A DNA stretch of 48,674 nucleotides from Roseburia sp. (lineage in GTDB: Bacteria > Bacillota > Clostridia > Lachnospirales > Lachnospiraceae), in contig JAMPIG010000018.1 of assembly GCA_023662875.1 (NCBI GenBank), forward strand, positions 1 to 48,674. Direction: 5' to 3'. The notes under the pieces are model-generated. The model saw only the letters and a list, made by a program, of their open reading frames with translations, made no database searches and was not told the origin of the DNA. The translations under genes were made by a program, and so were the position numbers. Shown here piece by piece: positions 1 to 35,818 of the stretch. How positions within the stretch are numbered: position 1 is the stretch's first letter; each line of letters opens with the position of its first letter.

Positions 1-846
1 AATGAGCGAAGTATCCAGAGGGATATCAACGATATCCGGGATTTCCTTGACGCTGATTCCGCAAGGACGGGCAGCATCAATTCGGTGGTTTATGACCGAA
101 TCGATAGAGGCTATCGGCTCGAGACGCTGTATAGGCTTCGGCTGAAAAACTGCGAGATTCTGGCGCTGTGTAAGATATTGTTGGACAGCAGGGCATTTAC
201 AAAAGCGGAGATGAAGGAGATGCTGGATAAGCTGATTGCCTGCTGTGTGCCGAAGAGCAATCAGAGGCTTGTGAAAGATATGATCAGCAATGAAGAGTTT
301 CACTATGTAGAGCCGCGGCATAAGTCCGAATTCATGGATAAAATGTGGGATATCGCGCAGGCTGTTCGGGAGTCCAGATATATTGAGATAGATTATCTGC
401 GGATGAAGGACAAGGAGATCGTTCATAGAAAAATAAAACCGGCAGCAATTATGTTCTCTGAATATTACTTTTATTTTACGGCATTTATCGACGACGAAGA
501 GGTAAAAAAGGATTTTAATGTGCTGAATGATTCGTTCCCGACGATTTATCGGATTGACCGTATTAAGAAACTTACAGTGCTGGAGGAGAGGTTTCACCTC
601 CCGTACAGCAGCCGCTTTGAGGAAGGCGAGTTTCGTAAGCGGATCCAGTTTATGTACGGAGGGAAGCTGCAAAGAGTAACATTCCGATATTCGGGGATTG
701 ATGTGGACGCCATTCTGGACAGGCTGCCCACGGCGAAGATCCTGGAGGAAGAGGACGGCGTGTATACGATCAGCGCGGAGGTTTTTGGAAAAGGAATCGA
801 TATGTGGCTGAGAAGCCAGGGCGATAATGTGGAAATTATTGATTGA
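1..846 (+). CDS. WYL-domain transcriptional regulator (5' end outside window)
   Basis: The reading frame is open from base 1, so the gene begins upstream; a GTG at 85 is internal. The first visible residues (SIQRDINDIRDFL) look like the recognition helix of the N-terminal winged HTH of WYL proteins. The centre holds the WYL fold (YIEIDYLR, FYFTAFI, IYRIDRIKKL) and the last 75 residues a WCX-type dimerisation domain (VTFRYSG ... GVYTISAEVFGKGIDMWLRSQG). WYL proteins sense ligands, often nucleic acids or nucleotides, and several (CapW, BrxR) repress phage-defence operons. It ends 50 bp before the dynamin genes on the same strand with no obvious terminator between, so control of, or co-transcription with, that cassette is inferred. 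Family call firm, target inferred. Confidence 0.88.
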   Translation, partial: NERSIQRDINDIRDFLDADSARTGSINSVVYDRIDRGYRLETLYRLRLKNCEILALCKILLDSRAFTKAEMKEMLDKLIACCVPKSNQRLVKDMISNEEFHYVEPRHKSEFMDKMWDIAQAVRESRYIEIDYLRMKDKEIVHRKIKPAAIMFSEYYFYFTAFIDDEEVKKDFNVLNDSFPTIYRIDRIKKLTVLEERFHLPYSSRFEEGEFRKRIQFMYGGKLQRVTFRYSGIDVDAILDRLPTAKILEEEDGVYTISAEVFGKGIDMWLRSQGDNVEIID

Positions 847-896
847 CAGGATGCTTAATGAACGCAATTCATAGAGAACACATGTGGAGGTGAAAT

Positions 897-1940
897 ATGT
901 CAATCTCGGAAAGCAGGGAATCGGATGGCTGGCAGGCTCAAAAAGCTGTACGCCGGAAAAGTTTGATAGCTGATAGTTTTTTTCCAGACAAACTGGCTAT
1001 AGACCATGCGAAGGTATACCCGATGCTGGTAATGGCTACTATGTCAAGCGGGAAAAGCACGCTTATTAACGCTATTATGGGTAATGAGCTGCTGCCCAAC
1101 CGAAATGAAGCATGTACTGCAAAAGTGTATTCAATCTTAGATGACGATACATGCAAAAAAATGCGAATGTATATTACTGATAAAAACGGTGCGGTAGCTT
1201 GCGTTAAGGACAATTTTGCCATGGCACTGGAGAAGGCAAATGAAAATGACGATGTGGAGAGTATATTTATTCAGGGGCAGGTAAAGGGAGTGTTGAATAC
1301 AGATAAGGCATTGCTGGTGATTGATACTCCGGGGCCGAACAACTCCAGGGATAAAGCGCATGAAGCGATTGCCCAAAATATTCTTAAGATGCTAAAAGGC
1401 GGTCTGATAATTTATGTAATCAATGCCACGCAGCTTGGCATAACAGATGACAGAGAGCTTCTGAAAATGCTGAAGGAATTTACCGTTGCACATAAAAATA
1501 TAACGCCGGTGTTTGTGGTAAATAAAGTTGACCAGTTAGATATGGAAAAAGAGTCATTGGCAGATTTGTTGAAGGCAGCAAAGGAATATCTTGAACATAA
1601 CGGTTTCCTTTCACCTGATATTATTCCGGTATCTGCGCTGGCGGCACTGTTGTTTAAAAAGGTTTTAAACGGTGACAGGCTGACACGAAGCCAAAAGAAA
1701 GAGTTTAGATATTGTTATGAATTGTTCGCCCCGCAAGATTTTTCGCTGAAATCATATGCGGTTACGGAAGACTTGCCGGATCAGTATGACGATGTGGTGA
1801 GTGAAGTTGGGACGTTTAAGGTATCGGAAATAAGGCGGGCAATCGAAAATACAGGCATTACCTATTTGGAAAGTTATATCCAGCGGTTTCAGATTTTAAG
1901 CGGTGAAAAGTTATCAAACAGAGTACAGATAAGAAAGTAG
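897..1940 (+). CDS. Dynamin-like GTPase, G domain only (347 aa)
   Basis: GTP-binding protein of the bacterial dynamin type. G1 is MSSGKST at residues 49-55, G3 is DTPG at 143-146 and G4 is NKVD at 209-212. The expected first P-loop glycine is alanine (ATMSSGKS), as in the next gene. It matches residues ~145-450 of that gene (shared LLPxxxxACTA, DTPGPNNSRD, NATQxGITDD, GDRLxRxxK) but stops where the helical stalk would begin. It has no membrane-binding or coiled-coil part and may form a heterodimer with, or regulate, the larger partner. ATG at 897 follows GGAGGTG. The gap to the next gene is 11 bp. Codon use is A/T-rich. Inference: membrane-associated GTP switch in the cassette. Confidence 0.85.
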   Translation: MSISESRESDGWQAQKAVRRKSLIADSFFPDKLAIDHAKVYPMLVMATMSSGKSTLINAIMGNELLPNRNEACTAKVYSILDDDTCKKMRMYITDKNGAVACVKDNFAMALEKANENDDVESIFIQGQVKGVLNTDKALLVIDTPGPNNSRDKAHEAIAQNILKMLKGGLIIYVINATQLGITDDRELLKMLKEFTVAHKNITPVFVVNKVDQLDMEKESLADLLKAAKEYLEHNGFLSPDIIPVSALAALLFKKVLNGDRLTRSQKKEFRYCYELFAPQDFSLKSYAVTEDLPDQYDDVVSEVGTFKVSEIRRAIENTGITYLESYIQRFQILSGEKLSNRVQIRK

Positions 1941-1951
1941 AGGAACAGAGA

Positions 1952-4252
1952 ATGACGAAATTTCAGATCGAGTATAATCCATATACAGTGGAGTGTAACT
2001 TTATAAAAAATGGGAAATTGTTAAACTCAAAAAGTAAAATAGGCGCAAAATCAGGCGTCAGACTGCAGGTATTGTTAGGGGAGGCAGTGAACTGGAAAGG
2101 CTTGGCGGAGGAGATCGTATCTGCCTGCGACGATGATGAGATTGAGTTGACGTTTAAGGGACGGGTGATTGATTACGAGGATTTAAAATACTGTATCGAT
2201 CATTATAACGGTGAAGCGCATTTTGAATTGCACTTTGACGAGGCAAAAAATGATGCGGATGTAATTACGGAGTTGGATAACTTATTTTATGAAATTAAAG
2301 CGAAAGATCTTCCTGAGTTTAAAATAACAAATGAAGACGGGAAAAATATTTTTGACGCATATGAGGAGGTAAAGAGCGGTATTTTTGAAGTAAGTGTTAT
2401 TGCTACTATGAGCAGCGGCAAATCAACACTGATTAATTCTCTTTTGCATACGGAGTTATTACCGTCGGAAAATAAGGCGTGTACTGCGACGGTTGCCAGA
2501 ATCCTGGATAACGACGATATGGATCATTACGAGGCAGAATGTTACGCAAAAGATGAAAAAACGCTTATTCATTCGAGGGCGGCGGTGGATTCTGAAATGC
2601 TGAAAAAGTATAACGGAGACCCGCAGATCATGTATATTGATATTGAGGGTAATGTGCCGGCAATTTCAAGCGATAAGATCAGACTTTGTTTACGGGATAC
2701 CCCGGGCCCCAATAATTCCAGGGATGAAAATCATGGGAAACTGACAAATAGTATTATTAAGCGGACAAACGCTGTAGTGCTGTATGTCATGAATGCGACA
2801 CAATTTGGTATTACGGATGACAAACAGCTGTTGTTGGATATTTCAAGCGAGATGAAGCGTGCCGGAAAGCAATCGAGGGACAGATTCATTTTTGTTGTAA
2901 ATAAATGCGATCAATTGGATGAGGAAAAGGAGCCGTTAGATAAGCTATTAGAAGAGGTAAAGAATTATTTAAAGCAATTTGGAATCGATGACCCAACTAT
3001 CATACCGACCAGCGCACAACTGGCTCTTTTGATACGAAAGGATAGAAGAGGAGACAGATTATCCAGGCAGGAGAAAAACACACTGAGCCAGGTGGACGAT
3101 TATGTAAAGAATAAACTGCTGCATTTTGAAGATTATGCCACATTGACGCCGAATGTGCGGGAAAAGCTGCGCCTGCAGGTGGAGAAATATCATTTGGACG
3201 AGGAAACCTGGGATTATGAAGCTTTGATACATACAGGCGTACCGGCGGTAGAGGAAACAATTATTGAATATATTGATAAATATGCGTATCCGATGAAGAT
3301 AAAGGATGCAATCAAAGATATTGTCGCCATACTTGGTGAACTCAATATGAAAGCCAGGTTTGACGAAGTCATTGCCCAAGATGACGAAAAGCTGAATATG
3401 GTTCGGAAACAGATCGCAGATGCCAGGGAGAGGCATGAGAAAAGCAAGCAGATATATGATGATTATAAAGCAAAGATTGATTCCTTCGGATTGGATTCCG
3501 TTGTTGAAGACGAAGAACAATTTCGCATTGAAAATACGCTCAACCTTATGCTGAAAGAATATGACGGAAAAGAAAAAGTTGATAAATTAGTCGCAGATTC
3601 CCTGATCGAGGAATTTCAGGATAATCTGGGCCGGTATCAGGAAGAATGTGAAAGCCGCCTGAACAGGGAAATAGATTTACATATTTTCCAAAAATGCTCC
3701 GAAATGATGGATGAGTATGCGTCGGTAGTGAGAAGTATTTTGAATGACATGGAAATCGAAGGGTATGATTTTGAGAAGATATCTTCGTTTGAAAGAATAA
3801 AGATAAAAAATATTAATGATATTACCAGAAGGAATGAACAGGACAGAGTCAGAAAGGAAACCAGATGGAAGGATAATCCGGAGCGGGCCGGTTTTTGGGG
3901 AAAATTTAAATTCTGGAAACCGAAGCAGATATCCTATACCGTAGAGGTAAAAGAAGGCATTGATGTCAATGTAAAGAATGTTATTGTGGATATTATGAAT
4001 ATTTTTTCAAAAAGTATAAAAGAAAATATTTCATATATGTTTGAACAGTCAGAAGCTCAGATTCAGGAGTATAAAGGGGCATTTAAGGACAATATTGAAA
4101 AACTGAATACGGAAATCGGAAAAATCATTGAACAGTTAGATCGTGATACGAGTGAATCGGCATTGTTACAGGACAAGGTTGAGAAGAACCGGGAACTGGC
4201 AAAATGGGTTAGCGAAAAGGAAGAAAAAATCAGAACAATATTAATGTTTTAA
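1952..4252 (+). CDS. Full-length dynamin-like GTPase (766 aa)
   Basis: Large GTPase with three visible parts. Residues 1-140 are an N-terminal domain not recognised. The G domain spans about 145-440, with G1 MSSGKST at 153-159, G3 DTPG at 249-252 and G4 NKCD at 317-320. After ~440 the chain is charged and helical with coiled-coil character (LNMVRKQIADARERHEKSKQ and similar), plus a short aromatic/basic patch (GFWGKFKFWKPK, about residue 650) that could touch membrane. Dynamin-like proteins hydrolyse GTP to tubulate, fuse or seal membranes; some bacterial ones work as unequal pairs (LeoA with LeoB/LeoC, for example), matching the tandem arrangement here. No classic transmembrane paddle is seen. 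Family call is strong; membrane action is inferred. Confidence 0.87.
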   Translation: MTKFQIEYNPYTVECNFIKNGKLLNSKSKIGAKSGVRLQVLLGEAVNWKGLAEEIVSACDDDEIELTFKGRVIDYEDLKYCIDHYNGEAHFELHFDEAKNDADVITELDNLFYEIKAKDLPEFKITNEDGKNIFDAYEEVKSGIFEVSVIATMSSGKSTLINSLLHTELLPSENKACTATVARILDNDDMDHYEAECYAKDEKTLIHSRAAVDSEMLKKYNGDPQIMYIDIEGNVPAISSDKIRLCLRDTPGPNNSRDENHGKLTNSIIKRTNAVVLYVMNATQFGITDDKQLLLDISSEMKRAGKQSRDRFIFVVNKCDQLDEEKEPLDKLLEEVKNYLKQFGIDDPTIIPTSAQLALLIRKDRRGDRLSRQEKNTLSQVDDYVKNKLLHFEDYATLTPNVREKLRLQVEKYHLDEETWDYEALIHTGVPAVEETIIEYIDKYAYPMKIKDAIKDIVAILGELNMKARFDEVIAQDDEKLNMVRKQIADARERHEKSKQIYDDYKAKIDSFGLDSVVEDEEQFRIENTLNLMLKEYDGKEKVDKLVADSLIEEFQDNLGRYQEECESRLNREIDLHIFQKCSEMMDEYASVVRSILNDMEIEGYDFEKISSFERIKIKNINDITRRNEQDRVRKETRWKDNPERAGFWGKFKFWKPKQISYTVEVKEGIDVNVKNVIVDIMNIFSKSIKENISYMFEQSEAQIQEYKGAFKDNIEKLNTEIGKIIEQLDRDTSESALLQDKVEKNRELAKWVSEKEEKIRTILMF

Positions 4253-4267
4253 TGTGGAGGAAAGACT

Positions 4268-4744
4268 ATGCAGAAATATGATGCGATTGAACAGGGAATC
4301 GCCGGAAAAGATGTAGGCGCCCTTCGAGAGGCAATAGGAAGTATCTGCTATACCAGCCGGAATTTTTCCAGCGGCGAGTTTGACGAGGCGATCAAATATG
4401 TGGAAGCTCATGGAATAAAGCTGAAGGATGATGCGTTAGCGGGGAATCCGACCATATCCTCCCAAAAGGATGTTTTTTCGGATGAAGATTTTGCAAGGGC
4501 AGTCTTTGAATTAAAAAGAAATTTTTGTGATGAGAGAATTCGGGATGTAAAAACGATTGGCAAAAAACTGTATTCTACCTCTACGGTTGTCCCGGATGCG
4601 GAGAGGAGTTCCGGAACGGGAGAAACGGGAAAGACCGGTACAGACCCAAACGCAGACAGCCGCCAGTCAGGCAAAATGACTTTGATTGTGGGCGTGGCGG
4701 CTGCAATAGTGATAATTGCCTTATTTATACTCGTAATGAAGTGA
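4268..4744 (+). CDS. Tail-anchored membrane protein of the dynamin/HerA cassette (158 aa)
   Basis: No named family recognised. Residues 1-105 look like a small soluble helical domain (AIGSICYTSRNFSSGEFDEAI, FARAVFELKRNF). Residues 108-136 form a Ser/Gly/Thr-rich linker, and 138-157 form one strongly hydrophobic helix ending in Lys. This implies a C-terminal anchor with the body in the cytoplasm. GGAGG lies 8 bp before the ATG, and the stop overlaps the next start (GTGA). Its place between the GTPases and the ATPase suggests a membrane docking adaptor for one of them; that is inference. The coding call is firm because length, RBS and operon spacing all agree. Confidence 0.75.
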   Translation: MQKYDAIEQGIAGKDVGALREAIGSICYTSRNFSSGEFDEAIKYVEAHGIKLKDDALAGNPTISSQKDVFSDEDFARAVFELKRNFCDERIRDVKTIGKKLYSTSTVVPDAERSSGTGETGKTGTDPNADSRQSGKMTLIVGVAAAIVIIALFILVMK

Positions 4745-5031
4745 ATGACCGGTTCGGCTGCAATCGTGCTAAAACCTGTTATAAGTGCGGTAAGATAAGT
4801 CAATGCGAGGAAAAAGCCGCGGGAGAATTTCGAAAGTTCAGGAAGGCCCGTAGAAAGGCGCTTGAAAAAAGATATTATTGCGAGAACGTAAAAGGAATCT
4901 GCAAACTGAATAAATGTGATTATTACAAACAATGCAGCAGAGCGGAAAAGGTAAATTATTATGTTTGGAAACAGGCCTTTGAGCGCAACCAAAAACAGGA
5001 ATTAGAGCGGCTTGGCAGAGGAGGTAGATGA
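4741..5031 (+). CDS. Cysteine-rich basic small protein, probable zinc binder (96 aa)
   Basis: Starts at a GTG that shares GTGA with the previous stop, the usual sign of translational coupling. Eight cysteines at 7, 13, 16, 22, 47, 54, 59 and 65 form two clusters separated by a very basic helix (FRKFRKARRKALEKR, residues 30-44). The pattern fits two small zinc sites with nucleic-acid or protein contacts, but no known finger family is recognised. Its 3' end overlaps the Shine-Dalgarno region of the HerA-like gene. An ATG start is lacking, so the exact N-terminus is less certain. Function unknown. Confidence 0.65.
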   Translation: MNDRFGCNRAKTCYKCGKISQCEEKAAGEFRKFRKARRKALEKRYYCENVKGICKLNKCDYYKQCSRAEKVNYYVWKQAFERNQKQELERLGRGGR

Positions 5032-5032
5032 A

Positions 5033-8000
5033 GTGGACACAAATCTGGCGGAAATTCAGGATTATAAAAAGCTTGCGCTTTCTATGGAAACGGCAAAAGA
5101 TATTGTCACAAAAAGCTATTTGTATCAACTGGATTCATGTGAAGCGGAAAAGCTGAGCGAGAACCTGGAAGGACTGGATATTGCGGAATATACAAGATTT
5201 TACAAATTTCGGAAAATGGTGTCGGATAAGAAGGAGAGCACTCTTGATAAGCTGGTTACCGTGCTGAATTCGGCATACACAAGTAATGCCACTGTCATCA
5301 CGCTGATTTCCGGACGTAAAGAGTTTACGGATTATTATTTAGGAGTGATCAGCAAAGATATCAGTCAACAGTCGGAAAATATTGAAACGCAGGGAGAGAC
5401 ATTGAAAGGCGTTTTGACGGGGAATTTTCCCGGGCTTGAAATAGAGCCGATTAAAGGGGACGAGAAGAAAGCGCTTATCGAGAATACATTTCAATATGAA
5501 TACATAACGGCGATTTCCGGAATTGCGTCAGTCAGGAACAAAAAAGAGAATAATTATGAGAAATTCGTACAGGGGATAGAACATTTGGTGGATTCCTTTC
5601 AGGGCAGAGTGTATAATGTGGTTTTGATCGCTGATCCTGTGCGAAGCGGGGATATTGTACAGACCAGAATGGGATACGAGAATCTGTATACCCAGTTATC
5701 TCCGTTTTTGAAGACAGGCATGACCTTTAGTGAATCAGAGAATATAGGAGTATCGCGCTCCCACACGGATGGTATTTCGAAAACGATTTCGGAAAGTACG
5801 GCCCTGACTCAAAATTATTCCAAAACCAGCGGCTGGAGCGAAAGCTCAAACCAGGGAACCAGCAAAAATAGAGATATCGGAAGGCTGGTGGGCAGTGTGG
5901 TTGGCGCCGGGCTTGGCGTGGCGGCAACGGTGTTGACGGGCGGGGCGGCGGCACCGGCTGTAGTGGCGGCGATGTATGCCGGGAGCAATATTGGCGGTAC
6001 GGTGGGCGGCAGTTTGATTGGTTCGCAAGGGGAAAACGAAGGTCAAAGCGTCACGGAATCCGGAAGCATTACGGATTCTTCCGGCAAGACCGCCACGAAA
6101 AGTGTATCTGAAGGAAATCAAAGCAGCGAAACCGTAGGACAGACGGAAGGGCAGTCCCAGGGAAAAACAATTCAATTTTCCAACGAAAATCAGACGGTTA
6201 AGAATATCCTTTCCATGATAGAGCAGCATATTAAGCGCTTGCAGGAGTGCGATGCTTATGGCGCATTCAACTGCGCCGCCTATGTTGTCTCTTCGGATCC
6301 GGAAACAAACGCGATTGTCGCCAATGGATACAATGCGCTGATGAGAGGCGATAATTCTGCGCTGCAGGCATCTCATATTAATAGCTGGAATGCTTCGGAG
6401 CCGAATGGACAGGAGGTAATGAAATATCTGAAAAAGTTCAGTCATCCCTTATTTCGGGACGGCAGAAGCGATAATATACTGATAAGTCCTGCCTCTATAG
6501 TAAATTCATATGAATTGGCAGTAAGCATGGGTATGCCCAAAAAGTCCATCAACGGTTTGCCGGTTTATGAAATGGCGTCTTTTGGAAGAAATGTTTTTGA
6601 GCTGAATCAGAAAAATGACGGAAGAGCTCATATTCATTTGGGGCAAATATTTCACATGGGCGTTAAAAGCAGCACAGAGGTAAATCTGGATCTGAAAAGC
6701 CTTGCAATGCATACCTTTATCACCGGTTCGACAGGCTCCGGAAAGTCCAATACTGTGTATCAACTGCTAAGAGAATTAAAAAAACAAAATATACACTATT
6801 TAGTAGTGGAGCCGGCAAAAGGCGAATACAAGCATATATTTGGAAATGAGGGAGCCAAGGTATATGGAACCAATCCGTATTATACTGCCTTGCTCAAGGT
6901 GAACCCGTTTAAATTTCCTGACGGAATTCATGTTCTGGAGCATATTGATCGGCTAATAGAGATTTTTAATGTCTGCTGGCCTATGTATGCGGCAATGCCT
7001 GCGGTGCTGAAGGATTCGGTGGAGAAAGCATATATCAGTGCGGGATGGGATCTTAATACGTCTGAAAACAGGTATGGGGAAGCGATATACCCGACGTTTG
7101 TGGATGTATTAACGCAATTAGATATTGTTGTGGAAAATTCCGGATTTTCCCAGGAGGTGAAAGACAACTATATTGGTTCCCTGTCCACCAGAATAAAATC
7201 TCTGACAAATGGAATATATGGGAGAATATTCAGCGGAGATGAAACAGGAGACATTAGTTTGTTTGATCAGGACGTAATAGTAGATCTGAGCAGAGTTGGA
7301 TCTGTTGAAACAAAGTCTATGATCATGGGAATTTTGGTGATGCGGCTTCAGGAATACAGGATGATGTCCGGGGAGATGGATGCGGATTTAAAGCATGTTA
7401 CTGTTTTAGAAGAAGCGCATAATCTTTTAAAAAGAACATCGACGGAGCAGAGCGGGGAATCTGCAAATTTGTTGGGAAAATCGGTGGAAATGCTTTCAAA
7501 TGCGATTGCGGAAGTGCGGACGTACGGGGAAGGATTTATTATCGCGGATCAGGCACCGGGGCTTCTGGATCTGAGTGTGATTAGAAATACAAATACCAAG
7601 ATCATTATGCGTCTGCCGGATGCGGAAGACCGTTCTTTGGTTGGAAAGGCGGCAAATTTGTCGGAAGAGCAGATTCTGGAATTGTCTAAACTTCCTACCG
7701 GTGTAGCGGCTGTATATCAGAATAATTGGCTGGAACCCATTTTGTGTCAAGTCGAATACAAAAAAACGGAAGGACGCTATTTACAGCCGGAAAAGAATAC
7801 AGAAGATACAGGAAAGTACAATATTATATTGAAAGCGTTGCTAAACAAAACTGCAGGTGAGAAATTGGATTATAATCTCTCTGAACTGACCAGAATGGTA
7901 TTGGGCTTGAATATCTCAACAAAGGCAAAGATCGAAGTGATATCCGCCCTGAAGAAAAGGTGTTCCGGCGAGCTTTCTGAGATAAGCGAAGTGATCTATA

Positions 8001-8227
8001 ATATGGTTTATGATGAAGAAATTCTGGGTCAGGCATGGGAGGCGGAATCAATTGACGAATGGAAAGATATTTTGCTCTATTCCGAAAAGCTCGGGCTAAA
8101 CGAGTTGGAGGAAAAGCAGCAATTGGAAGTTGTGGAGTGTATTTTGCGGGAACAGACCAAAATGTCAGATGACCCTCAAAGGTATATGGATATGTGGGAA
8201 CAATATAAAAGGGGGGTGGTGTTCTGA
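5033..8227 (+). CDS. HerA/DUF87-like P-loop ATPase with glycine-zipper insertion (1064 aa)
   Basis: HerA-FtsK class ATPase. Walker A GSTGSGKS is at residues 565-572; Walker B VTVLEEAH has its acidic pair at 793-794. The following AEVRTYGEGFIIADQAP ... NTNTKIIMRL matches the HerA sensor/arginine-finger region. The first 560 residues are unlike simple HerA: residues ~281-330 form a Gly/Ala/Val hydrophobic island (GSVVGAGLGVAATV, SNIGGTVGGSLIG) flanked on both sides by Ser/Thr/Gln/Gly-rich low-complexity sequence. That could be a membrane-inserting segment. I chose GTG at 5033 because AGGAGG lies 8 bp upstream; a TTG at 5012 in the same frame has no such site. HerA proteins form hexamers that pump DNA or, in VirB4-like relatives, power secretion. 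It overlaps the nuclease gene by 1 bp. Confidence 0.85.
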   Translation: MDTNLAEIQDYKKLALSMETAKDIVTKSYLYQLDSCEAEKLSENLEGLDIAEYTRFYKFRKMVSDKKESTLDKLVTVLNSAYTSNATVITLISGRKEFTDYYLGVISKDISQQSENIETQGETLKGVLTGNFPGLEIEPIKGDEKKALIENTFQYEYITAISGIASVRNKKENNYEKFVQGIEHLVDSFQGRVYNVVLIADPVRSGDIVQTRMGYENLYTQLSPFLKTGMTFSESENIGVSRSHTDGISKTISESTALTQNYSKTSGWSESSNQGTSKNRDIGRLVGSVVGAGLGVAATVLTGGAAAPAVVAAMYAGSNIGGTVGGSLIGSQGENEGQSVTESGSITDSSGKTATKSVSEGNQSSETVGQTEGQSQGKTIQFSNENQTVKNILSMIEQHIKRLQECDAYGAFNCAAYVVSSDPETNAIVANGYNALMRGDNSALQASHINSWNASEPNGQEVMKYLKKFSHPLFRDGRSDNILISPASIVNSYELAVSMGMPKKSINGLPVYEMASFGRNVFELNQKNDGRAHIHLGQIFHMGVKSSTEVNLDLKSLAMHTFITGSTGSGKSNTVYQLLRELKKQNIHYLVVEPAKGEYKHIFGNEGAKVYGTNPYYTALLKVNPFKFPDGIHVLEHIDRLIEIFNVCWPMYAAMPAVLKDSVEKAYISAGWDLNTSENRYGEAIYPTFVDVLTQLDIVVENSGFSQEVKDNYIGSLSTRIKSLTNGIYGRIFSGDETGDISLFDQDVIVDLSRVGSVETKSMIMGILVMRLQEYRMMSGEMDADLKHVTVLEEAHNLLKRTSTEQSGESANLLGKSVEMLSNAIAEVRTYGEGFIIADQAPGLLDLSVIRNTNTKIIMRLPDAEDRSLVGKAANLSEEQILELSKLPTGVAAVYQNNWLEPILCQVEYKKTEGRYLQPEKNTEDTGKYNIILKALLNKTAGEKLDYNLSELTRMVLGLNISTKAKIEVISALKKRCSGELSEISEVIYNMVYDEEILGQAWEAESIDEWKDILLYSEKLGLNELEEKQQLEVVECILREQTKMSDDPQRYMDMWEQYKRGVVF

Positions 8228-8754
8228 TGGGAAGCTTTGATTTGGGTAAATTAGTAGATAATATAGAAAAGGAAGCTCAAAAGACAATTTCCAGAGAACT
8301 TAATGCATTCAAAAACACCGCAAATGAAACAGAGAAGCCAAAGCATATAAAAACGATTAATGAAAATATGGAAGGCAGCAGTGTTGCGGGGGTTCCGTAC
8401 AGAAAACAGATTATCAGAATTAACGGGGAGAAATACGAAGGAGTATTTCCGCGGTTTGAAGCGAAATATCAAATGATGCTGCCGCAACGCTTATATAGGG
8501 CATCTGACGATGAACAGATGAAATATTGTACACAGCGTTTAAAATTGGCTATAGAGCGGAATCCGGATCTTGCACGAAATTTTACAGCAAGACAACTGGA
8601 ACAGATTAAAGATGGAAATGCAAGAATCAGCGGATTAACATGGCATCATAATGAACGGCCGGGTATTATGCAGTTGGTAGATGCAAATGCGCACAGTGCA
8701 GCCCGTCATACAGGCGGAAGATCGATCTGGGGCGGCGGAGGCGACTATAGATAA
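8227..8754 (+). CDS. WHH-type HNH/Endo VII nuclease toxin (175 aa)
   Basis: The C-terminal 40 residues carry the WHH signature: W139-H140-H141, the MQLV strand at 148-151, H156 and HTGG at 161-164. This is the arrangement of WHH nucleases of the HNH/Endo VII superfamily used as toxin tips in polymorphic toxins. GVPYRKQIIRINGEKYEGVFP (split around residue 66) and the RNPDLARNF stretch are the usual pre-motif parts. The N-terminus (1-50) is charged and helical, without signal peptide or known export domain, so any delivery must come from other genes. Start codon overlaps the ATPase stop (TGATG) behind a G-rich Shine-Dalgarno site. The next gene encodes a matching immunity type, which supports a toxin role. 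DNA as substrate is inferred from family. Confidence 0.85.
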   Translation: MGSFDLGKLVDNIEKEAQKTISRELNAFKNTANETEKPKHIKTINENMEGSSVAGVPYRKQIIRINGEKYEGVFPRFEAKYQMMLPQRLYRASDDEQMKYCTQRLKLAIERNPDLARNFTARQLEQIKDGNARISGLTWHHNERPGIMQLVDANAHSAARHTGGRSIWGGGGDYR

Positions 8755-8764
8755 AGGAGGATTT

Positions 8765-9160
8765 ATGAAGATGGAATGGAAGTATAAAATCGAACTGGAA
8801 GAAGAATCGCTTGCCAGAGCGGAAAAAAAATTAGGTCAAGCGATCCCGGAGGACTTAAAAAAACTGATTCGGGAAGGAAATGCGGCAACCCCGTCTCAAA
8901 CGCATTTTATGGTAAAAGCAGATGAAAAAGTGTTTGGAGCGCTATTGTCATACAATGAAAACGATACGGATGCGGATACTGTATATGCCGCATTGAATGC
9001 CGGAATAGATAAGAGTCTGATTCCTTTTGGAATCGACCCGTTCGGCAATTATCTGTGTTATAAAGCCGATTCGGGTGAAATTGTTTATTATGATCATGAA
9101 GAGGATCGTTATGAAACAGTAAGTGATTCATTAACATCGTTTATGGAGTCTTTATATTAG
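8765..9160 (+). CDS. SMI1/KNR4 (SUKH) family immunity protein (131 aa)
   Basis: SUKH-superfamily fold: N-terminal helix with IPEDLKKLIREGN, and the diagnostic C-terminal run IPFGIDPFGNYLCYKADSG, then IVYYDHEEDRYETVSDSLTSFM. These proteins are the commonest immunity partners of HNH-family nuclease toxins and work by binding the toxin in the cytoplasm. The ATG at 8765 sits 5 bp after AAAGGAGG and 10 bp after the toxin stop. An upstream in-frame start at 8681 lies inside the toxin gene and has no ribosome-binding site. Acidic composition fits binding to a basic nuclease. Last gene of the cassette. Confidence 0.87.
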   Translation: MKMEWKYKIELEEESLARAEKKLGQAIPEDLKKLIREGNAATPSQTHFMVKADEKVFGALLSYNENDTDADTVYAALNAGIDKSLIPFGIDPFGNYLCYKADSGEIVYYDHEEDRYETVSDSLTSFMESLY

Positions 9161-9281: not shown

Positions 9282-10100
9282 ATGCTGAAAAGAATAACCG
9301 ATGTAAGCGAGTATATGGATTTTATCAATGAAATAAGCGGCGACCCCGATTTCAGTGATCCCATGCTTCAGACGCGGGAACAGTTGCGCTGTAATTTGCT
9401 GGAGGCTCCAAACAGGCCCGAGAATCAGGTTTGGGGAGTTTTTGAGAAGGAAGAGATAACCGGGTTGTTCGCTTTTTTAGTGTTGGAGGAGGAAGCCTAT
9501 CTGGAAATGCTCGCCGGTTTGTCACGAGTCCCCAAGGCATATGGGGAGATGCTTTCTTTTCTGAAAGGAAAATACGGAGGCTGCCTGATTGATTTCGTTT
9601 ATAATCCTGGAAACTATCCGCTGCATAAGCTGCTGCAAGATGAAAACGCGGAATTTGAAACGGAACAGCAAAAAATGGTTCTGAAGAAAATTATTCCATA
9701 TCAAAGCAAGCGACAAATCGCGCTTTATAAGCCCGAATACAGGGAGCAGTACTTTTCCATCCATCAGGATGAAGGCTACTGGACGGCGGAGAAGGTCATC
9801 GATGCGCCGGAGGTGTTTCGGGTTTTTCTTGCGATTGCTGGCGGAGAGGTGGTCGGTTATCTGGACGTTACATATTGTCATGACGAAAATGAGCCTTACG
9901 ATCTTTTTGTAAAGGAAGAATACCGGAGAATGGGTTATGGGAAAGCGATGCTGTCAAAGGCGATCGAGCTGAACGGGTCGAGGGGCATGACGGTCTTGAC
10001 GGATATTGACAACGCCGCCGCGATTGCGTTGTATGAGTCTCTCGGGTTTGTCAAAATGGCTGGGGAAAACAATGTAACGGCGCACGTCCGGGTGAGGTAG
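9282..10100 (+). CDS. GNAT family N-acetyltransferase (272 aa)
   Basis: Transfers an acetyl group from acetyl-CoA to an amine; substrate unknown. The C-terminal half is the recognisable GNAT domain: GEVVGYLDV strand, then the acetyl-CoA loop in EEYRRMGYGKAML (about residues 210-222) and the closing DNAAAIALYESLGF motif. The N-terminal 140 residues resemble a second, degenerate GNAT-like half (VWGVFEKEEITGLFAFLVLE), so a tandem-GNAT architecture is likely. ATG at 9282 follows GGGGAGCG. It has its own candidate promoter after the toxin cassette and stands alone between that cassette and a convergent membrane-protein gene. Confidence 0.82.
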   Translation: MLKRITDVSEYMDFINEISGDPDFSDPMLQTREQLRCNLLEAPNRPENQVWGVFEKEEITGLFAFLVLEEEAYLEMLAGLSRVPKAYGEMLSFLKGKYGGCLIDFVYNPGNYPLHKLLQDENAEFETEQQKMVLKKIIPYQSKRQIALYKPEYREQYFSIHQDEGYWTAEKVIDAPEVFRVFLAIAGGEVVGYLDVTYCHDENEPYDLFVKEEYRRMGYGKAMLSKAIELNGSRGMTVLTDIDNAAAIALYESLGFVKMAGENNVTAHVRVR

Positions 10101-31677: not shown

Positions 31678-34056
31678 ATGAGCAATCGTCCTGATCAATA
31701 TAACGACGGCGGGCAAGGCGGAAACCGGGGTAACGTGCCCGGCGGAGACAACAACAAGCGCGGAGGGAACGAGCCCCCGCGCCGCCCGAATATTATTATG
31801 ATGATCCTGTCGATCATTTCGATTATTTCCTGCATCTTTGCGGTGTATTACCTCTTCAATCTGGATAACCTGAACCAGCAGAGCGTAGAAGTCCCTTATA
31901 CGCAGTTCCTTCAGTATATTGAAGAAGGAAAGATCGACAAGGTTGAGGTACAGGCCAACAGGGAGCTGCAGGATGTTTCGGTAAAGTTTACGCTGAAGAG
32001 TGAGGAGAGCCAGGAGGAGGCGGAGAACCGCAGACCGGTAATGCTCCCCGGGCTTGGCTTTTATAGTATACAGCAGCCGGAGACGGAATACTATTCGGTT
32101 ATCATGGAGGACACCGGCACGCTGACGGCCCGTCTGGAGGCCCATGGCATCGAGGCGGAACGCACGCTTCCCAACAGCTTGAGCCTGCTGGAAATCTTCT
32201 TAAGTCTGCTGCCTGTGCTGGTTATGATCGTCCTGTTCAGTATCATGTTCCGCATGATGAGCAGCAACGGCGGGCCTATGGGTGCCGGGAAAAATAATGC
32301 CAAGGTTTATGTGCAGAAGGAGACGGGAGTAACCTTTAAGGATGTAGCCGGGGAGGACGAGGCGAAGGAATCCCTGGTCGAGGTCGTAGACTTCCTGCAT
32401 AATCCAGGGAAGTACTCCAAGATTGGCGCGAAGCTTCCGAAGGGCGCGTTGCTGGTGGGCCCTCCCGGAACCGGAAAGACGCTGCTGGCGAAGGCGGTGG
32501 CAGGAGAAGCGCATGTGCCCTTCTTCTCCCTGACAGGCTCCGACTTTATCGAGCTGTATGTCGGCGTGGGTGCCAGCCGTGTGCGGGATCTGTTTAAGGA
32601 GGCCAATAAGAACGCCCCCTGTATTATTTTTATCGATGAGATCGACGCGATCGGGCGCAGCCGCGATTCGACTTACGGCGGCGGAGGCGAGGAGAGGGAG
32701 CAGACGCTGAACCAGCTGCTGTCGGAGATGGACGGCTTTGATACCTCGAAGGGAATTTTGATTCTGGGAGCGACCAACCGTCCGGAGATCCTGGATAAGG
32801 CGCTTTTACGCCCGGGCCGGTTCGACAGACGGATTATCGTAGATAAGCCGGATCTGAAGGGACGTGTGGAGATCCTGAAGGTTCACGCAAAGGACGTCAG
32901 GATGGACGAGACGGTAGATCTGGACGCTATCGCCCTGGCAACCAGCGGCGCGGTGGGCTCCGATCTCGCTAATATGATCAACGAGGCGGCGATCAGCGCT
33001 GTCAAGGAAGGCAGGGAGTATGTCTGCCAGCAGGATCTGTTTAACGCGGTGGAGGTCGTCCTGGTCGGTAAGGAAAAGAAAGACCGCATCATGAGCAAGG
33101 AGGAGAGAAAGATCGTCTCCTACCATGAGGTGGGACACGCGCTGATCAGCGCCATGCAGAAGAACTCCGAGCCCGTACAGAAGATTACTATCGTCCCCCG
33201 AACCATGGGAGCGCTGGGCTATGTTATGCATGTTCCGGAGGAGGAGAAATACCTGAATACCGAGGCGGAGCTGCGGGATATGCTGGTCGGCCTGGTAGGG
33301 GGCCGGGCGGCGGAGGAGATCGTCTTTGACACCGTTACCACCGGCGCAGCCAACGATATCGAACGGGCGACGGCGATTGCCCGGAATATGGTGACGCGCT
33401 TCGGCATGAGCAAGAGGTTTGGCCTCGCCGGATTTGCCACAGTGGAGAGCCAGTATCTGGAGGGAAGGATGACGCTGAACTGCAGCGACGAGACGGCGGC
33501 CAGGATCGATGAGGAGGTTGTGGAAATCCTGCGGGAAAGCTACGAGAAGGCTCTTTCCATGCTGCGTGATAACCACGACGTGATGGATAAGCTGGCGGAA
33601 TTCCTGATCGAGAAGGAGACCATAACCGGCAAGGAGTTCATGGAAATCTACCGCAAGGTAAAGGGAATCCCGAAGCCGGAGAAGAAGACGGAGGGTTCAG
33701 AGACGGAAGGGCAGAAGACAGAAAACGCGGAAGGGCAGAAGACAGAAGCTTCGGAAGCGGAAGGCCGGGAGACGGAAGCGGCGGGAAGCGCGGAAGCAGA
33801 AAGCCGGGAAGCGGAAGCCGGAACGGAGAATCGGAGCTCTGTAACGGGAGAAAACCCGGGGACAGAGAGCCGAAAGGCGGAAGCGGAAGAAGATTCGGAA
33901 GCGGAAAAGCAGCAGCCCGCGAGGCTGACAGAGGCCGGAACGGATAGCGAAGCTGAGGAAAAGGCCCGGGCGGAAGAGCAGACGCAGGATGCCCAGGAAG
34001 CGCCTGCCCAGGAGGATAACCGTCCAAGGGGTCGGTTTTCTAACGGGAGGATATAA
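31678..34056 (+). CDS. ftsH: ATP-dependent membrane zinc protease FtsH with long acidic tail (792 aa)
   Basis: Membrane-bound AAA+ protease for quality control. Gly/Asn-rich N-terminus, TM1 about 38-60, extracytoplasmic loop, TM2 about 165-190, then the AAA domain: Walker A GPPGTGKT 261-268, Walker [12 protein letters not shown], and [22 protein letters not shown]. The zinc protease site HEVGH is at 483-487. After the usual end (about residue 662) a 130-residue tail rich in Glu, Ala, Ser and Thr follows, with imprecise repeats of the type EGQKTE/EAEGRE/EAESRE, closing with a basic [13 protein letters not shown] 31678 follows GGAGA. The tail is much longer than in standard FtsH. Confidence 0.95.
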
Positions 34057-34130
34057 AATTTGGAAGGAGTGCGTATTTTAATATTTGAAGCAAGTGATGT
34101 GCCTACTGGCAGAAGGCAGGAGCAGGAAGA

Positions 34131-34409
34131 ATGAAATTTGAGTGGGATGAGGATAAAAATTCCATAAATAAAGAGAAGCATAAGATTTCATTTGAGACAG
34201 CGGTTCATATCTTTGATGATCCTTATTATATTGAAATGTTTGATTTTGAACACAGTACTGTTGAAGACAGATATATAGCGATAGGAAGAGTCGGAGATGT
34301 ATTGTTTGTGGTATTTACAGAAAGAAAAGAAGCTGTCAGATTGATTTCGGCCAGACTTGCAACGAATGCAGAAAAGGAGCTTTATTATGATCAGGACATT
34401 CAATATTGA
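34131..34409 (+). CDS. brnT: BrnT family ribonuclease toxin (92 aa)
   Basis: Small RelE-like RNase of the BrnT/BrnA type II toxin-antitoxin family. The signature FEWDEDKNSINKEKHKISFE is at the start, followed by the strand pair DRYIAIGRVGDVLFVVFTER and RLISAR. AGGAGCAGGAAGA precedes the ATG at 34131. Its 3' end overlaps the next gene by 23 bp. The toxin gene leads, as in typical brnTA operons. Confidence 0.9.
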   Translation: MKFEWDEDKNSINKEKHKISFETAVHIFDDPYYIEMFDFEHSTVEDRYIAIGRVGDVLFVVFTERKEAVRLISARLATNAEKELYYDQDIQY

Positions 34410-34566
34410 AAACGGACAGAAGCCTACGGAGGAACAGCTTAGGGAAATAGAAGAAGCCCAAAAATACCCTATTGTTTTTGATGAAGACTGTCAGGAATTG
34501 TCTCCTGCGATGATGAAGGCGTTCAGAAGTGCGGTAGTGCAGAGAAACCGTAAGAAAAAGGCGTAA
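34387..34566 (+). CDS. Short partner of BrnT, presumed antitoxin (59 aa)
   Basis: Begins at ATG 34387 behind AAGGAG, inside the brnT 3' end. It reads MIRTFNIENGQKPTEEQLRE, later VFDEDCQELSPAMMKAF, ending in a very basic RNRKKKA. It is shorter than usual BrnA and I do not see a clear ribbon-helix-helix, so it is assigned by position and overlap. The acidic middle could cover the toxin. Confidence 0.72.
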   Translation: MIRTFNIENGQKPTEEQLREIEEAQKYPIVFDEDCQELSPAMMKAFRSAVVQRNRKKKA

Positions 34567-34630
34567 AACATGATGTAAGAGATAAATACGGCAGGGTTCG
34601 ATAGGGTTTATGCTATTGATGAAAAGCGAA

Positions 34631-34660
34631 GGGGCTGAAAAGTAAGTTCAGCCCCTTTGC
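34631..34660. terminator. Bidirectional-looking terminator between brnT operon and YgiT-like gene
   Basis: Arms GGGGCTGAA (34631-34639) and TTCAGCCCC (34647-34655) followed by TTTGCTGT; on the other strand it is followed by TTCGCTTTTC. It lies between convergent genes. Confidence 0.75.
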
Positions 34661-34668
34661 TGTCCTGC

Positions 34669-34896
34669 TTACGCAGCTTTGGAATAATCGATAACCGAGA
34701 TTTCCTGCATAAGCTGTTTTGCCATATTCACAAGAGCTTCAAGCTGCTTTGCGACGCCATTGGAATAATATTTTTCACCGCACTGCTCACATTCTTCGCA
34801 GGGTACGTTTTTGATAATAATGATACAGTTTTTATAGTTTACTACATGGGTGGTCAAAGCTGGCATTGTGGTTTCACATTTACAATACATACACAT
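34669..34896 (-). CDS. YgiT/MqsA-type zinc-finger protein (75 aa)
   Basis: Two CxxC pairs at MCMYCKCE and PCEECEQCGEKYYS form the N-terminal zinc domain seen in MqsA/YgiT antitoxins; the DNA-binding HTH half of full MqsA is absent. It sits 2 bp after a DUF4258 gene in the same direction, the usual partner arrangement. Together they look like a compact toxin-antitoxin pair; the toxin role is inferred from family context. Confidence 0.82.
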   Translation of the reverse strand: MCMYCKCETTMPALTTHVVNYKNCIIIIKNVPCEECEQCGEKYYSNGVAKQLEALVNMAKQLMQEISVIDYSKAA

Positions 34897-34898
34897 AA

Positions 34899-35204
34899 TT
34901 ATTTCTCCTTCCTGGTTTTTAAATCCGCTTCAAATTTATCTGTGCTTGGATAATAAGCAGTTACAAAAAATATAGTATTCCCATCTGAACCGATAACAAT
35001 ATGCATTATTTTACTCTCTTTAGTATATCCGAAAATAAGGCAGCTGGGATGAGGAAAATCATCGGGATAATCTTCTATGACTTCTCCCGTTTCCAGGCAG
35101 GATTCTACATCGTTTATGCTTATATCCCGTTCCTGCATTCGCTCGAGACAGTGCTTTGCCCATTTTATATTCGATTCGGATGCATGATACAGGGATTGAA
35201 GCAG
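34899..35204 (-). CDS. DUF4258 protein, possible RelE-like toxin; start uncertain
   Basis: Core DISINDVESCLETGEVIED ... IMHIVIGSDGNTIFFVTAYYPS is typical DUF4258, a small RelE-like fold. An ATG at 35138 is internal, because conserved-looking sequence continues upstream in frame (KWAKHCLERMQERDI) to a CTG at 35204. The only well-placed ATG (35215, after GAGGAAAA) runs into TAA at its third codon; removing one AT from ATGATATAAAA would restore the frame. So either a non-ATG start is used or a 2-bp slippage has broken the 5' end. The coordinates give the uninterrupted in-frame span. Confidence 0.65.
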   Translation of the reverse strand: MLQSLYHASESNIKWAKHCLERMQERDISINDVESCLETGEVIEDYPDDFPHPSCLIFGYTKESKIMHIVIGSDGNTIFFVTAYYPSTDKFEADLKTRKEK

Positions 35205-35281
35205 TTTTATATCATATTAATAATTTTCCTCGTCTGCTTTTTATATAGTATACACCATTTTTTATAAAAGGGAACGGTTAA

Positions 35282-35818
35282 TTATCCCCGTGCATATTGA
35301 AATGCCCGGACAACATAATCGGCGGAACCGACCCCGTTTTTCGTATCAAACAAAGTTTTCAGATAATCGTTGGAGTATGTTTCCGTGATGATTTTGCAAT
35401 AGTTCTCTTGATCTCCCGGTATTTCAGACGGAGCATTCTTATAAGCAAAGCGAATTATCTCTTTGACAATATTTTGTACTTCATCCGCGGAGACGTCTTT
35501 GTCTTTCTTCGACGCCAGCTCTTGAAACAAGTCCTTCTGTTTCAGCTCCTCCGGGATTTGGGACATTTGCTTTTCCATGATTTCCGAAAAATGCTCCATA
35601 TTGTATTTCATGGATTCCGTAAAGCTTTCAACGCAGGCGACGCCGTTCAGCACAAGGCTTACCAATTTCTTCGCCCGCGCCGCTATTGACAAAGCTTCTT
35701 TTTTGGGCGTAAACTGACAGAGTAAGGTCAGGTGCCATTTTCGGCAGACTCCCCTGGGCGATGGAGCCGGGATACAAGTCCGCCCAGGATTCCAACAGGC
35801 AGGAGACAAATATAGCAT
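35282..35818 (-). pseudogene. Remnant of a regulator-like C-terminal domain
   Basis: The C-terminal part from about 35690 down (KYNMEHFSEIMEKQMSQIPE, LKTLFDTKNGVGSADYVVRA) is an all-helical domain reminiscent of TipAS-type effector domains of MerR regulators, a weak resemblance. The first 40 residues (Cys/Pro/Trp-rich) look non-biological and lie over the uvrC leader, and no DNA-binding domain or good start site is present. Best read as a 5'-truncated gene; a short intact protein is possible. Confidence 0.4.

What the first reader, a model, noticed from the sequence alone, without database searches (positions are those of the whole stretch)
1..9160. WYL-controlled dynamin pair / HerA-like ATPase / WHH nuclease / SUKH cassette: candidate undescribed conflict system
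Seen: eight tightly packed co-directional genes with coupled starts (GTGA, TGATG), A/T-richer than the DNA after 10 kb. Established: WYL proteins regulate several phage-defence operons; bacterial dynamins act on membranes; HerA-class ATPases pump DNA or drive secretion; WHH nucleases are toxin tips and SUKH proteins are their immunities. Inference: the ATPase and the GTPase pair form a membrane machine that moves or deploys the nuclease, either outward against competitors or inward against phage DNA. I know of no named system with this full gene set.
Basis: partly seen in the sequence, partly recalled or inferred. Interest (0 to 1): 0.9.

Follow-up and report, generated by a model that had tools for sequence, protein, structure and literature searches.

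The report
Dynamin–HerA machine carrying swappable toxins
A group of bacterial genes seen in many kinds of bacteria appears to encode a membrane motor linked to interchangeable toxins, each with its own antidote, and it may be a toxin-delivery machine for which I found no published description.

Summary
The eight co-directional genes are real and recur. Relatives of the HerA-like ATPase occur in 49 of 392 genomes of the order, the window's own included, in 326 stretches of genome contigs (80 kept), and with the same gene order on E. coli and Lactococcus plasmids. In 102 of 103 loci the next ORF is co-directional, 97 of them within -110..+30 bp. It is mostly a toxin-type protein, followed by a matching immunity-like gene. 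ATPases 91% and 88% identical carry different pairs. The toxins' N-termini follow the ATPase lineage, not the toxin type (permutation 0 of 2000); 5 of 100 loci have a second gene with the same N-terminus.

The ATPase has two arms in which nearly every second residue is Ser/Thr/Gly/Asn, flanking a hydrophobic tip: a signature of membrane-inserting beta-hairpins.

Best reading: an undescribed polymorphic-toxin delivery machine. A HerA motor with a predicted built-in pore docks toxins by an N-terminal signal; dynamins and a tail-anchored protein shape the membrane. Hexamer, pore, export and target are untested; structure prediction was off. Eight literature searches found no description.

The parts
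1..846 (+). WYL-domain regulator, cut at its 5' end by the contig end
   Evidence: (PF13280 3.7e-07)
897..1940 (+). short dynamin-like GTPase (347 aa)
   Evidence: Dynamin_N 4.6e-14; GTPase motifs
1952..4252 (+). large dynamin-like GTPase (766 aa) with its own N-terminal domain
   Evidence: Dynamin_N 2e-16; N-terminal domain found in 71 Dyn2-class proteins of the unique loci
4268..4744 (+). tail-anchored membrane protein (158 aa)
   Evidence: C-terminal hydrophobic segment in 61 of 73 family members; family in 71 of 121 loci
4741..5031 (+). small Cys-rich protein (96 aa), found in 9 of 121 loci
   Evidence: no Pfam hit
5033..8227 (+). HerA-like ATPase (GTG start; ORF from TTG 5012)
   Evidence: Walker A GSTGSGKS, 7 of its 8 residues (572-579) invariant or at least 90% conserved among 101 sequences
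5702..5866 (+). ascending Ser/Thr/Gly/Asn-alternating arm (aa 231-285, numbered from TTG 5012)
   Evidence: z=5.7 against composition-preserving shuffles; register printed
5867..6025 (+). hydrophobic Gly/Ala-rich tip (aa 286-338)
6026..6190 (+). descending alternating arm (aa 339-393)
   Evidence: z=6.3; register printed
8227..8754 (+). toxin-type protein: Colicin-DNase/WHH nuclease (175 aa), its ATG overlaps the ATPase stop
   Evidence: (PF12639 2.4e-22)
8227..8376 (+). presumed N-terminal docking signal of the toxin (first ~50 aa)
   Evidence: inferred from the family-level result
8765..9160 (+). SUKH-1 immunity-type protein (ORF from 8681)
   Evidence: (PF09346 6e-17)

Best explanation
This is a polymorphic toxin system with its own dedicated delivery machine. 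A HerA-class ATPase forms a ring motor (inferred from HerA homology) whose N-terminal half carries a long Ser/Thr/Gly-rich hairpin with a membrane-seeking tip. Six copies would make a beta-barrel conduit on top of the motor (inferred). The toxin carries a short N-terminal signal matched to that ATPase lineage and is pumped through the conduit and out of the cell, while the immunity protein protects the producer and its kin (inferred). The tail-anchored protein would seat the machine on the membrane. The dynamin pair would deform, tether or pinch the membrane, possibly releasing vesicles; some lineages have a Sel1-repeat protein in its place. WYL would control expression. Shown here: conserved linkage, toxin/immunity swapping, N-termini that follow the ATPase, second genes with the same N-terminus, period-2 order in the stem. 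Inferred: hexamer, pore, export, direction, target.
For: Next ORF co-directional in 102 of 103 loci, 97 of the 102 within -110..+30 bp, against 57% of 270 background same-strand pairs. Families in the +1 protein: Colicin-DNase 43, LHH 14, Endonuclea_NS_2 13, Gln_amidase 4 of 102. Of 95 flanking genes, the 25 commonest families (of 109) include only Endonuclea_NS_2 of these, 2 members. Immunity-type +2 protein: SUKH 33, DUF6985 21, DUF7832 4, YezG 3 of 90. 16 toxin C-terminal clusters of 95 pair closely with 13 immunity clusters of 87 (T1-I2 12, T2-I0 12, T3-I3 5 of 6, T4-I4 4, T6-I5 3). Swaps at 91.2% ATPase identity (L052/L065) and 87.8% (L055/L061): 2 of 12 pairs at 80% or more differ in toxin cluster, 26 of 55 at 70-80%. 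N-terminal similarity between different toxins: median 56 for ATPases at least 65% identical (n=57), 24 below 50% (n=3002); same toxin with ATPases below 50%: median 25 (n=875); permutation 0 of 2000. Second gene with the same N-terminus in 5 of 100 loci. Stem: 88 of 103 ATPases have a 50-aa window with alternation z>=4, against 0 of 179 control genes. 22 of 103 tips alternate hydrophobic residues at z>=3, against 17 of 597 controls. The 4 plasmid ATPases fetched (of 41 records) score 7.2, 5.0, 5.9, 4.7, and 1 of their 4 following proteins (Lactococcus) begins with the SPLGK...DKP..EYDKP signal. 1 of 95 toxins has a hydrophobic N-terminus.
Against: No structure could be predicted, so hairpin, hexamer and barrel rest on sequence alone. 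15 of 103 ATPases have no window with z>=4; L140, L141 and L143 score -0.7, 1.1 and 0.0. In the window the tip is Gly/Ala-rich and not alternating, so it may be helical. Controls are uneven: the ATPase was scanned in more windows per gene (2608 for 103) than control genes (611 for 179), though per-window medians are 2.58 and -0.05; step sizes, shuffles and loci (first 60) differ. Some +1 proteins have none of the main toxin families, and one is a TerD protein. Immunity cluster I0 serves both T0 and T2, and I2 both T1 and T7. Relatedness of loci is not modelled in the permutation. Dynamins are missing in 9 of 72 loci. Nothing shows secretion, toxicity or immunity.
Confidence: 0.6

Rival explanations
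1. An anti-phage or abortive-infection system. The HerA ring and dynamins sense or answer infection and unleash the nuclease inside the own cell; the immunity gene is an antitoxin that prevents accidental killing.
For: The ATPase and one dynamin match models in PADLOC (HerA 5.3e-20, mad8 3.2e-18, LeoA 4.1e-06), and WYL is listed there as a CRISPR-associated signalling protein. The system is patchy: no match in the 10 same-genus genomes listed. It lies on plasmids.
Against: Toxin and immunity types change together, and some loci stack a second cassette behind the first, a pattern of competition systems (PMC3482391, passages, and recalled). The commonest PADLOC hits among 95 flanking genes have 2 members each (25 of 88 families shown, no baseline). 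A pore-like stem and a shared N-terminal signal are not needed for an internal toxin.
Confidence: 0.22
2. The toxins leave by another machine (type VII or type IV secretion), and the HerA/dynamin set is only its local energiser or regulator.
For: YueA-like FtsK/HerA ATPases drive type VII secretion of polymorphic toxins (PMC3482391, passages). The window's genome has three WXG100 matches on another contig, two over the cut-off.
Against: No LXG match in the genome, which is a draft, and no LXG or WXG100 among the 24 families of the 102 +1 proteins. I saw no recurrent secretion-channel gene in the gene lists, but did not search for one systematically. The E. coli plasmid copy is a compact six-gene set.
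Confidence: 0.08
3. Hitch-hiking: a toxin/immunity addiction module happens to sit behind a membrane or DNA-maintenance operon and has nothing to do with it.
For: Toxin/immunity pairs are mobile in general (recalled).
Against: Near-constant position; N-termini follow the ATPase; second genes repeat the N-terminus.
Confidence: 0.04
4. The Ser-rich arms are not a pore but a repetitive adhesive or disordered spacer; the ATPase then works as a plain HerA translocase.
For: NCBI names a related model only 'serine-rich protein' (NF033849, 114.9 bits against a cut-off of 650). No solved structure matches the region by sequence (best E 0.49). Three relatives show no alternation.
Against: Period-2 order, not seen at z>=4 in 179 other Ser/Thr/Gly/Asn-rich genes of the same loci; some tips read as alternating hydrophobic hairpins.
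Confidence: 0.25

Closest known systems
Type VIIb secretion system with LXG toxins (EssC/YueA; PMC3482391, passages)
   Same: FtsK/HerA-class ATPase; toxins with adjacent immunity proteins; Endonuclea_NS_2 and YezG-like families occur here too
   Different: No WXG100 or LXG family in the +1 proteins; toxins have a short linear N-terminus; dynamins and tail-anchored protein; one HerA domain with a Ser-rich stem
LeoA/B/C dynamins of enterotoxigenic E. coli (PMC4159319, start of abstract in the listing)
   Different: HerA and a swappable toxin tail are not mentioned in the text I saw; only one of the two GTPases has a weak LeoA match (4.1e-06)
Bacterial dynamin-like pair (PMC6104087, start of abstract in the listing)
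   Same: Two dynamins in one operon, membrane tethering
   Different: No toxin cargo mentioned in the text I saw
Polymorphic toxin systems (PMC3482391, passages)
   Same: Shared N-terminal trafficking part, swappable toxin domains, immunity proteins
   Different: This machine is not in the passages I read, and the paper has 0 uses of 'dynamin'
HerA-containing anti-phage systems and MADS (PADLOC models)
   Same: HerA ATPase core
   Different: Here the partners are dynamins and a toxin; no characteristic partner matched among the window's other proteins
Beta-barrel pore-forming proteins (recalled)
   Same: Alternating small-polar stem with a hydrophobic tip
   Different: The stem would sit in a cytosolic ATPase; no sequence match to a solved structure

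Membership tests
Polymorphic toxin system | Related machines carry different toxin domains | tested here: met
   16 toxin clusters of 95; 2 of 12 ATPase pairs at 80% identity or more and 26 of 55 at 70-80% differ
Polymorphic toxin system | Adjacent cognate immunity gene that changes with the toxin | tested here: met
   (by family and cluster; neutralisation not tested)
Polymorphic toxin system | Shared N-terminal trafficking region across different toxins | tested here: met
   trafficking itself not tested
Polymorphic toxin system | Toxin reaches and harms other cells | not testable with these tools
   needs competition assays
Type VIIb secretion | WXG100/LXG cargo or partner in the operon | tested here: not met
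   none among 102 +1 proteins or the window operon; WXG100 only on another contig; no LXG in the draft genome
HerA anti-phage systems / MADS | Defining partner proteins next to HerA (partner list recalled) | tested here: not met
   besides the ATPase, only WYL models and weak LeoA, mad8, HEC-01B and PDC-M40A hits; genes upstream of WYL not available
HerA ATPase superfamily | HerA core with Walker A and conserved motifs | tested here: met
Dynamin superfamily | Dynamin_N GTPase with intact nucleotide motifs | tested here: met
Beta-pore-forming proteins | Amphipathic hairpin, period-2 pattern | tested here: met
   88 of 103 at z>=4; sequence pattern only
Beta-pore-forming proteins | Oligomeric barrel in a membrane | not testable with these tools
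   structure prediction switched off

The most novel reading that the evidence does not exclude
A new class of bacterial protein secretion machine: an ATP-driven HerA ring that carries its own beta-barrel stem, so motor and pore are one protein. It recognises cargo by a short N-terminal linear signal and works with dynamins to breach or bud the membrane, in single-membrane and double-membrane bacteria alike, to deliver interchangeable toxins.
Probability: 0.4. Interest if true: 0.96.

Novelty: categorically new. Interest (0 to 1): 0.87.

Why it matters
If true, this adds a secretion machine to the known list, one with an unusual architecture (motor and pore in one chain) and a role for bacterial dynamins in toxin delivery. 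It would give many gut anaerobes a way to deploy nuclease toxins that lack ordinary signal peptides, and the short cargo signal makes export directly testable. The toxin/immunity half is of a known kind; the machine is what is new.

Tried and rejected
Considered and rejected: (1) order unique to one strain; (2) random toxin neighbour; (3) type VII cargo. Led nowhere or gave no claim: (4) one simple motif as the signal: [DE]xP[LI] occurs in the first 90 aa of 28 of 95 toxins (shuffled mean 9.4, maximum 18; 11 of 91 in the rest of the protein), so it marks only part of the family; (5) which ATPase segment reads the signal: rank correlations were all weak, 0.09 to 0.23, highest for the C-terminal part; (6) Sel1-repeat replacements sharing the large dynamin's N-terminal domain: not detected; (7) E. 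coli as a place to watch swaps: only 1 of 5426 genomes at megablast sensitivity; (8) RNA elements: none in the window at Rfam gathering thresholds; (9) NCBIfam scan of the relatives: not run.

Literature: the eight searches gave listings; only passages of PMC3482391 were read. No listed title or abstract start describes this system. The library lacks most subscription papers and preprint servers, so prior description cannot be excluded.

Rows dropped: 14 of 121 loci as near-duplicates; 12 of the remaining 107, named in the script (distant, broken, or without a clean +1 gene), leaving 95 toxins and 87 immunity genes; 6 of 107 left out of A3 by length or distance; 4 of 107 with short ATPases left out. 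All loci come from searches with this ATPase, so counts describe its relatives, and one search kept the best 80 of 326. Gene calls are my own simple ORF picks, not annotation.
Full report
Observation. The window begins at a contig end. Positions 1-9160 hold eight co-directional ORFs: WYL regulator (cut), two dynamin-like GTPases, a tail-anchored protein, a small Cys-rich protein, a HerA-like ATPase, a Colicin-DNase/WHH nuclease and a SUKH protein. The coupled starts are as described, with two starts corrected to 5033 and 8765. GC is 40-46%, against 47-59% in the rest apart from 34-36 kb and 47-48 kb.

Spread. With the ATPase as query, 49 of 392 genomes of the order have a match at E <= 1e-10, the window's own included, and 326 stretches in genome contigs encode a relative, of which the best 80 were kept. 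The titles of those 80 include Lachnospiraceae, Clostridium, Paenibacillus, Bacillus, Gemella, Veillonella, Brachyspira, Treponema, Campylobacter, Leptotrichia and a Synergistaceae bacterium, so both single- and double-membrane bacteria (membrane type recalled). 41 plasmid records match at E <= 1e-30, but all below 60% identity and only one over 80% of the query; many, such as the 19 Streptomyces records, may be other HerA families. Of four fetched, the E. coli and Lactococcus copies have the same order, annotated dynamin, dynamin, one or two hypothetical proteins, ATP-binding protein, HNH nuclease and a small partner; Exiguobacterium has ATPase, HNH and SMI1/KNR4 without an annotated dynamin; Acinetobacter is distant. 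The 10 same-genus genomes listed have no match (323 further genomes without a match are not listed), so the system is patchy.

Gene order. I compared 121 loci, 107 unique. Among 72 with at least 5.5 kb upstream, 63 have a dynamin, 50 two or more, 42 the tail-anchored family and 40 a WYL gene. A second layout has two short dynamins, two or three further proteins and a ~720-aa dynamin before the ATPase; the two further proteins of L046 have no Pfam hit above cut-off. Of nine loci without a dynamin hit, three scanned have a Sel1-repeat protein instead and one (L137) a TerB-like protein; five were not scanned.

Cargo. In 102 of 103 loci the next ORF is co-directional, in 97 of these within -110 to +30 bp of the ATPase stop (27 at exactly -4, 16 at -1), against 57% of 270 background pairs. 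Pfam on 102 such proteins: Colicin-DNase 43, WHH 41 (overlapping sets), LHH 14, Endonuclea_NS_2 13, Gln_amidase 4, putative metallopeptidase DUF6782 2, TerD 1; the first three main groups plus Gln_amidase cover at most 74, so at least 28 have none of these four (Colicin-DNase, LHH, Endonuclea_NS_2, Gln_amidase). Pfam on 90 following genes: SUKH-1 33, DUF6985 21, DUF7832 4, YezG-like 3. Clustering gives 16 toxin and 13 immunity groups that go together closely; exceptions are I0, which follows both T0 (17) and T2 (12), I2, which follows T1 (12) and T7 (2), and T0, which splits between I1 (23) and I0 (17). T7 members L141 and L143 contain an LHH-like stretch upstream of a hydrophobic tail (read by eye), which may explain their I2 partner. 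Two Brachyspira ATPases 91.2% identical carry different pairs, as do L055 and L061 at 87.8%; these are 2 of 12 pairs at 80% or more.

Signal. Between different toxins, the first up to 60 residues score a median of 56 when their ATPases are at least 65% identical (57 pairs), 26 at 50-65% (340) and 24 below 50% (3002); the same toxin type with ATPases below 50% scores 25 (875). Shuffling ATPases among loci 2000 times never reached the observed difference (32.2 against a maximum of 6.6). The shuffle does not model descent: what it shows is that N-termini stay with the ATPase lineage while C-termini change. The best-marked version reads like RFADSPLGK...FDKP...YDKPLG, before toxins of groups T0, T2 and T3, and recurs in the Lactococcus plasmid toxin, which was not used to find it (1 of 4 plasmid copies). 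In 5 of 100 loci (L071, L096, L115, L132, L135) a second gene downstream repeats the first toxin's N-terminus (E 7e-05 to 5e-11) with another C-terminus; L068 and L062 look similar by eye. 1 of 95 toxins has a hydrophobic N-terminus, so ordinary signal peptides do not explain export.

Stem. In the window's ATPase, the arms aa 231-285 and 339-393 have Ser/Thr/Gly/Asn at nearly every second position over most of their length (z 5.7 and 6.3 against composition-preserving shuffles; registers), flanking a hydrophobic tip of 53 residues. Of 103 ATPases, 84 have an arm with z above 2 by the tip-based measure, and 88 a 50-residue window at z >= 4, against 0 of 179 other genes with equally rich windows; per-window medians are 2.58 and -0.05, and the maxima favour the ATPase, which has more windows per gene. 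In 22 of 103 the tip itself alternates hydrophobic and other residues at z >= 3, against 17 of 597 controls from the first 60 loci, with finer steps for the ATPase. The four plasmid ATPases, not used before, score 7.2, 5.0, 5.9 and 4.7. Against: 15 of 103 fall below 4, and L140, L141 and L143 show essentially none. The pattern is what one expects of a membrane-inserting beta-hairpin (recalled knowledge of pore-forming proteins). A profile search against solved structures finds 12 sequences, HerA-type or secretion ATPases by name or unspecified ATP-binding proteins; the stem itself matches none.

Mechanism. HerA proteins work as ring motors (recalled; one search lists several multi-chain HerA entries). 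Six stems would give a twelve-strand barrel with small polar residues on one face, long enough to cross a membrane (inference). The simplest full reading is a motor that threads an unfolded toxin, caught by its N-terminus, through its own pore, while the tail-anchored protein and dynamins prepare the membrane, perhaps by budding, as has been suggested for LeoA (PMC4159319, start of abstract). Linkage, swapping and N-terminal tracking are shown here; hexamer, pore, export and target are not.

Rivals. Anti-phage use cannot be excluded. Among 95 flanking genes PADLOC hits were scattered (mad3, AriA and an ATPase-Toprim model 2 each; DndB, PtuA, SoFic and others 1 each; 25 of 88 families shown), without a baseline. 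Type VII export is unlikely from the missing LXG and WXG100 partners. Chance linkage is disfavoured.

Novelty. Eight literature searches listed no description; the library is partial. NCBI has a related model called only serine-rich protein. The toxin/immunity half meets the tested features of polymorphic toxin systems, a known kind. The machine matches none of the systems tested, so I rate the whole as categorically new, with function unproven; a reader who weighs the cargo more would call it a new variant of a known kind.

Noticed in passing
L045, about 1.0-1.2 kb after the ATPase: Fragments similar to the ATPase's C-terminal part lie behind the toxin/immunity pair (best 56% identical over 80 aa), as if a cassette had been displaced by recombination.
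   Followed up: partly
L140, L141, L143: ATPases with short Ser-rich arms and no period-2 pattern; their next proteins (422-502 aa) end in a long Gly/Ala-rich hydrophobic region, as if a membrane part had been added to the cargo.
   Followed up: partly
G000 contig C71, 24.5-27.7 kb: Three WXG100-like matches (two above the cut-off), with no LXG match in the draft genome.
   Followed up: no
L154 (Acinetobacter piscicola plasmid): A distant ATPase relative with a Ser-rich region, next to a WYL gene and small proteins, the first two rich in Gly/Ser, without an annotated dynamin nearby.
   Followed up: no
window 9282-10100: A GNAT acetyltransferase gene follows the cassette; the iterative search found it in no other locus of 121.
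   Followed up: no
window 34001-36000: A second A/T-rich dip (39-44% GC) in otherwise G/C-richer DNA.
   Followed up: no
phage collection, MT837341.1: A 7-kb human faecal record labelled bacteriophage encodes a relative covering 92% of the ATPase at 38% identity; it has no annotation.
   Followed up: no
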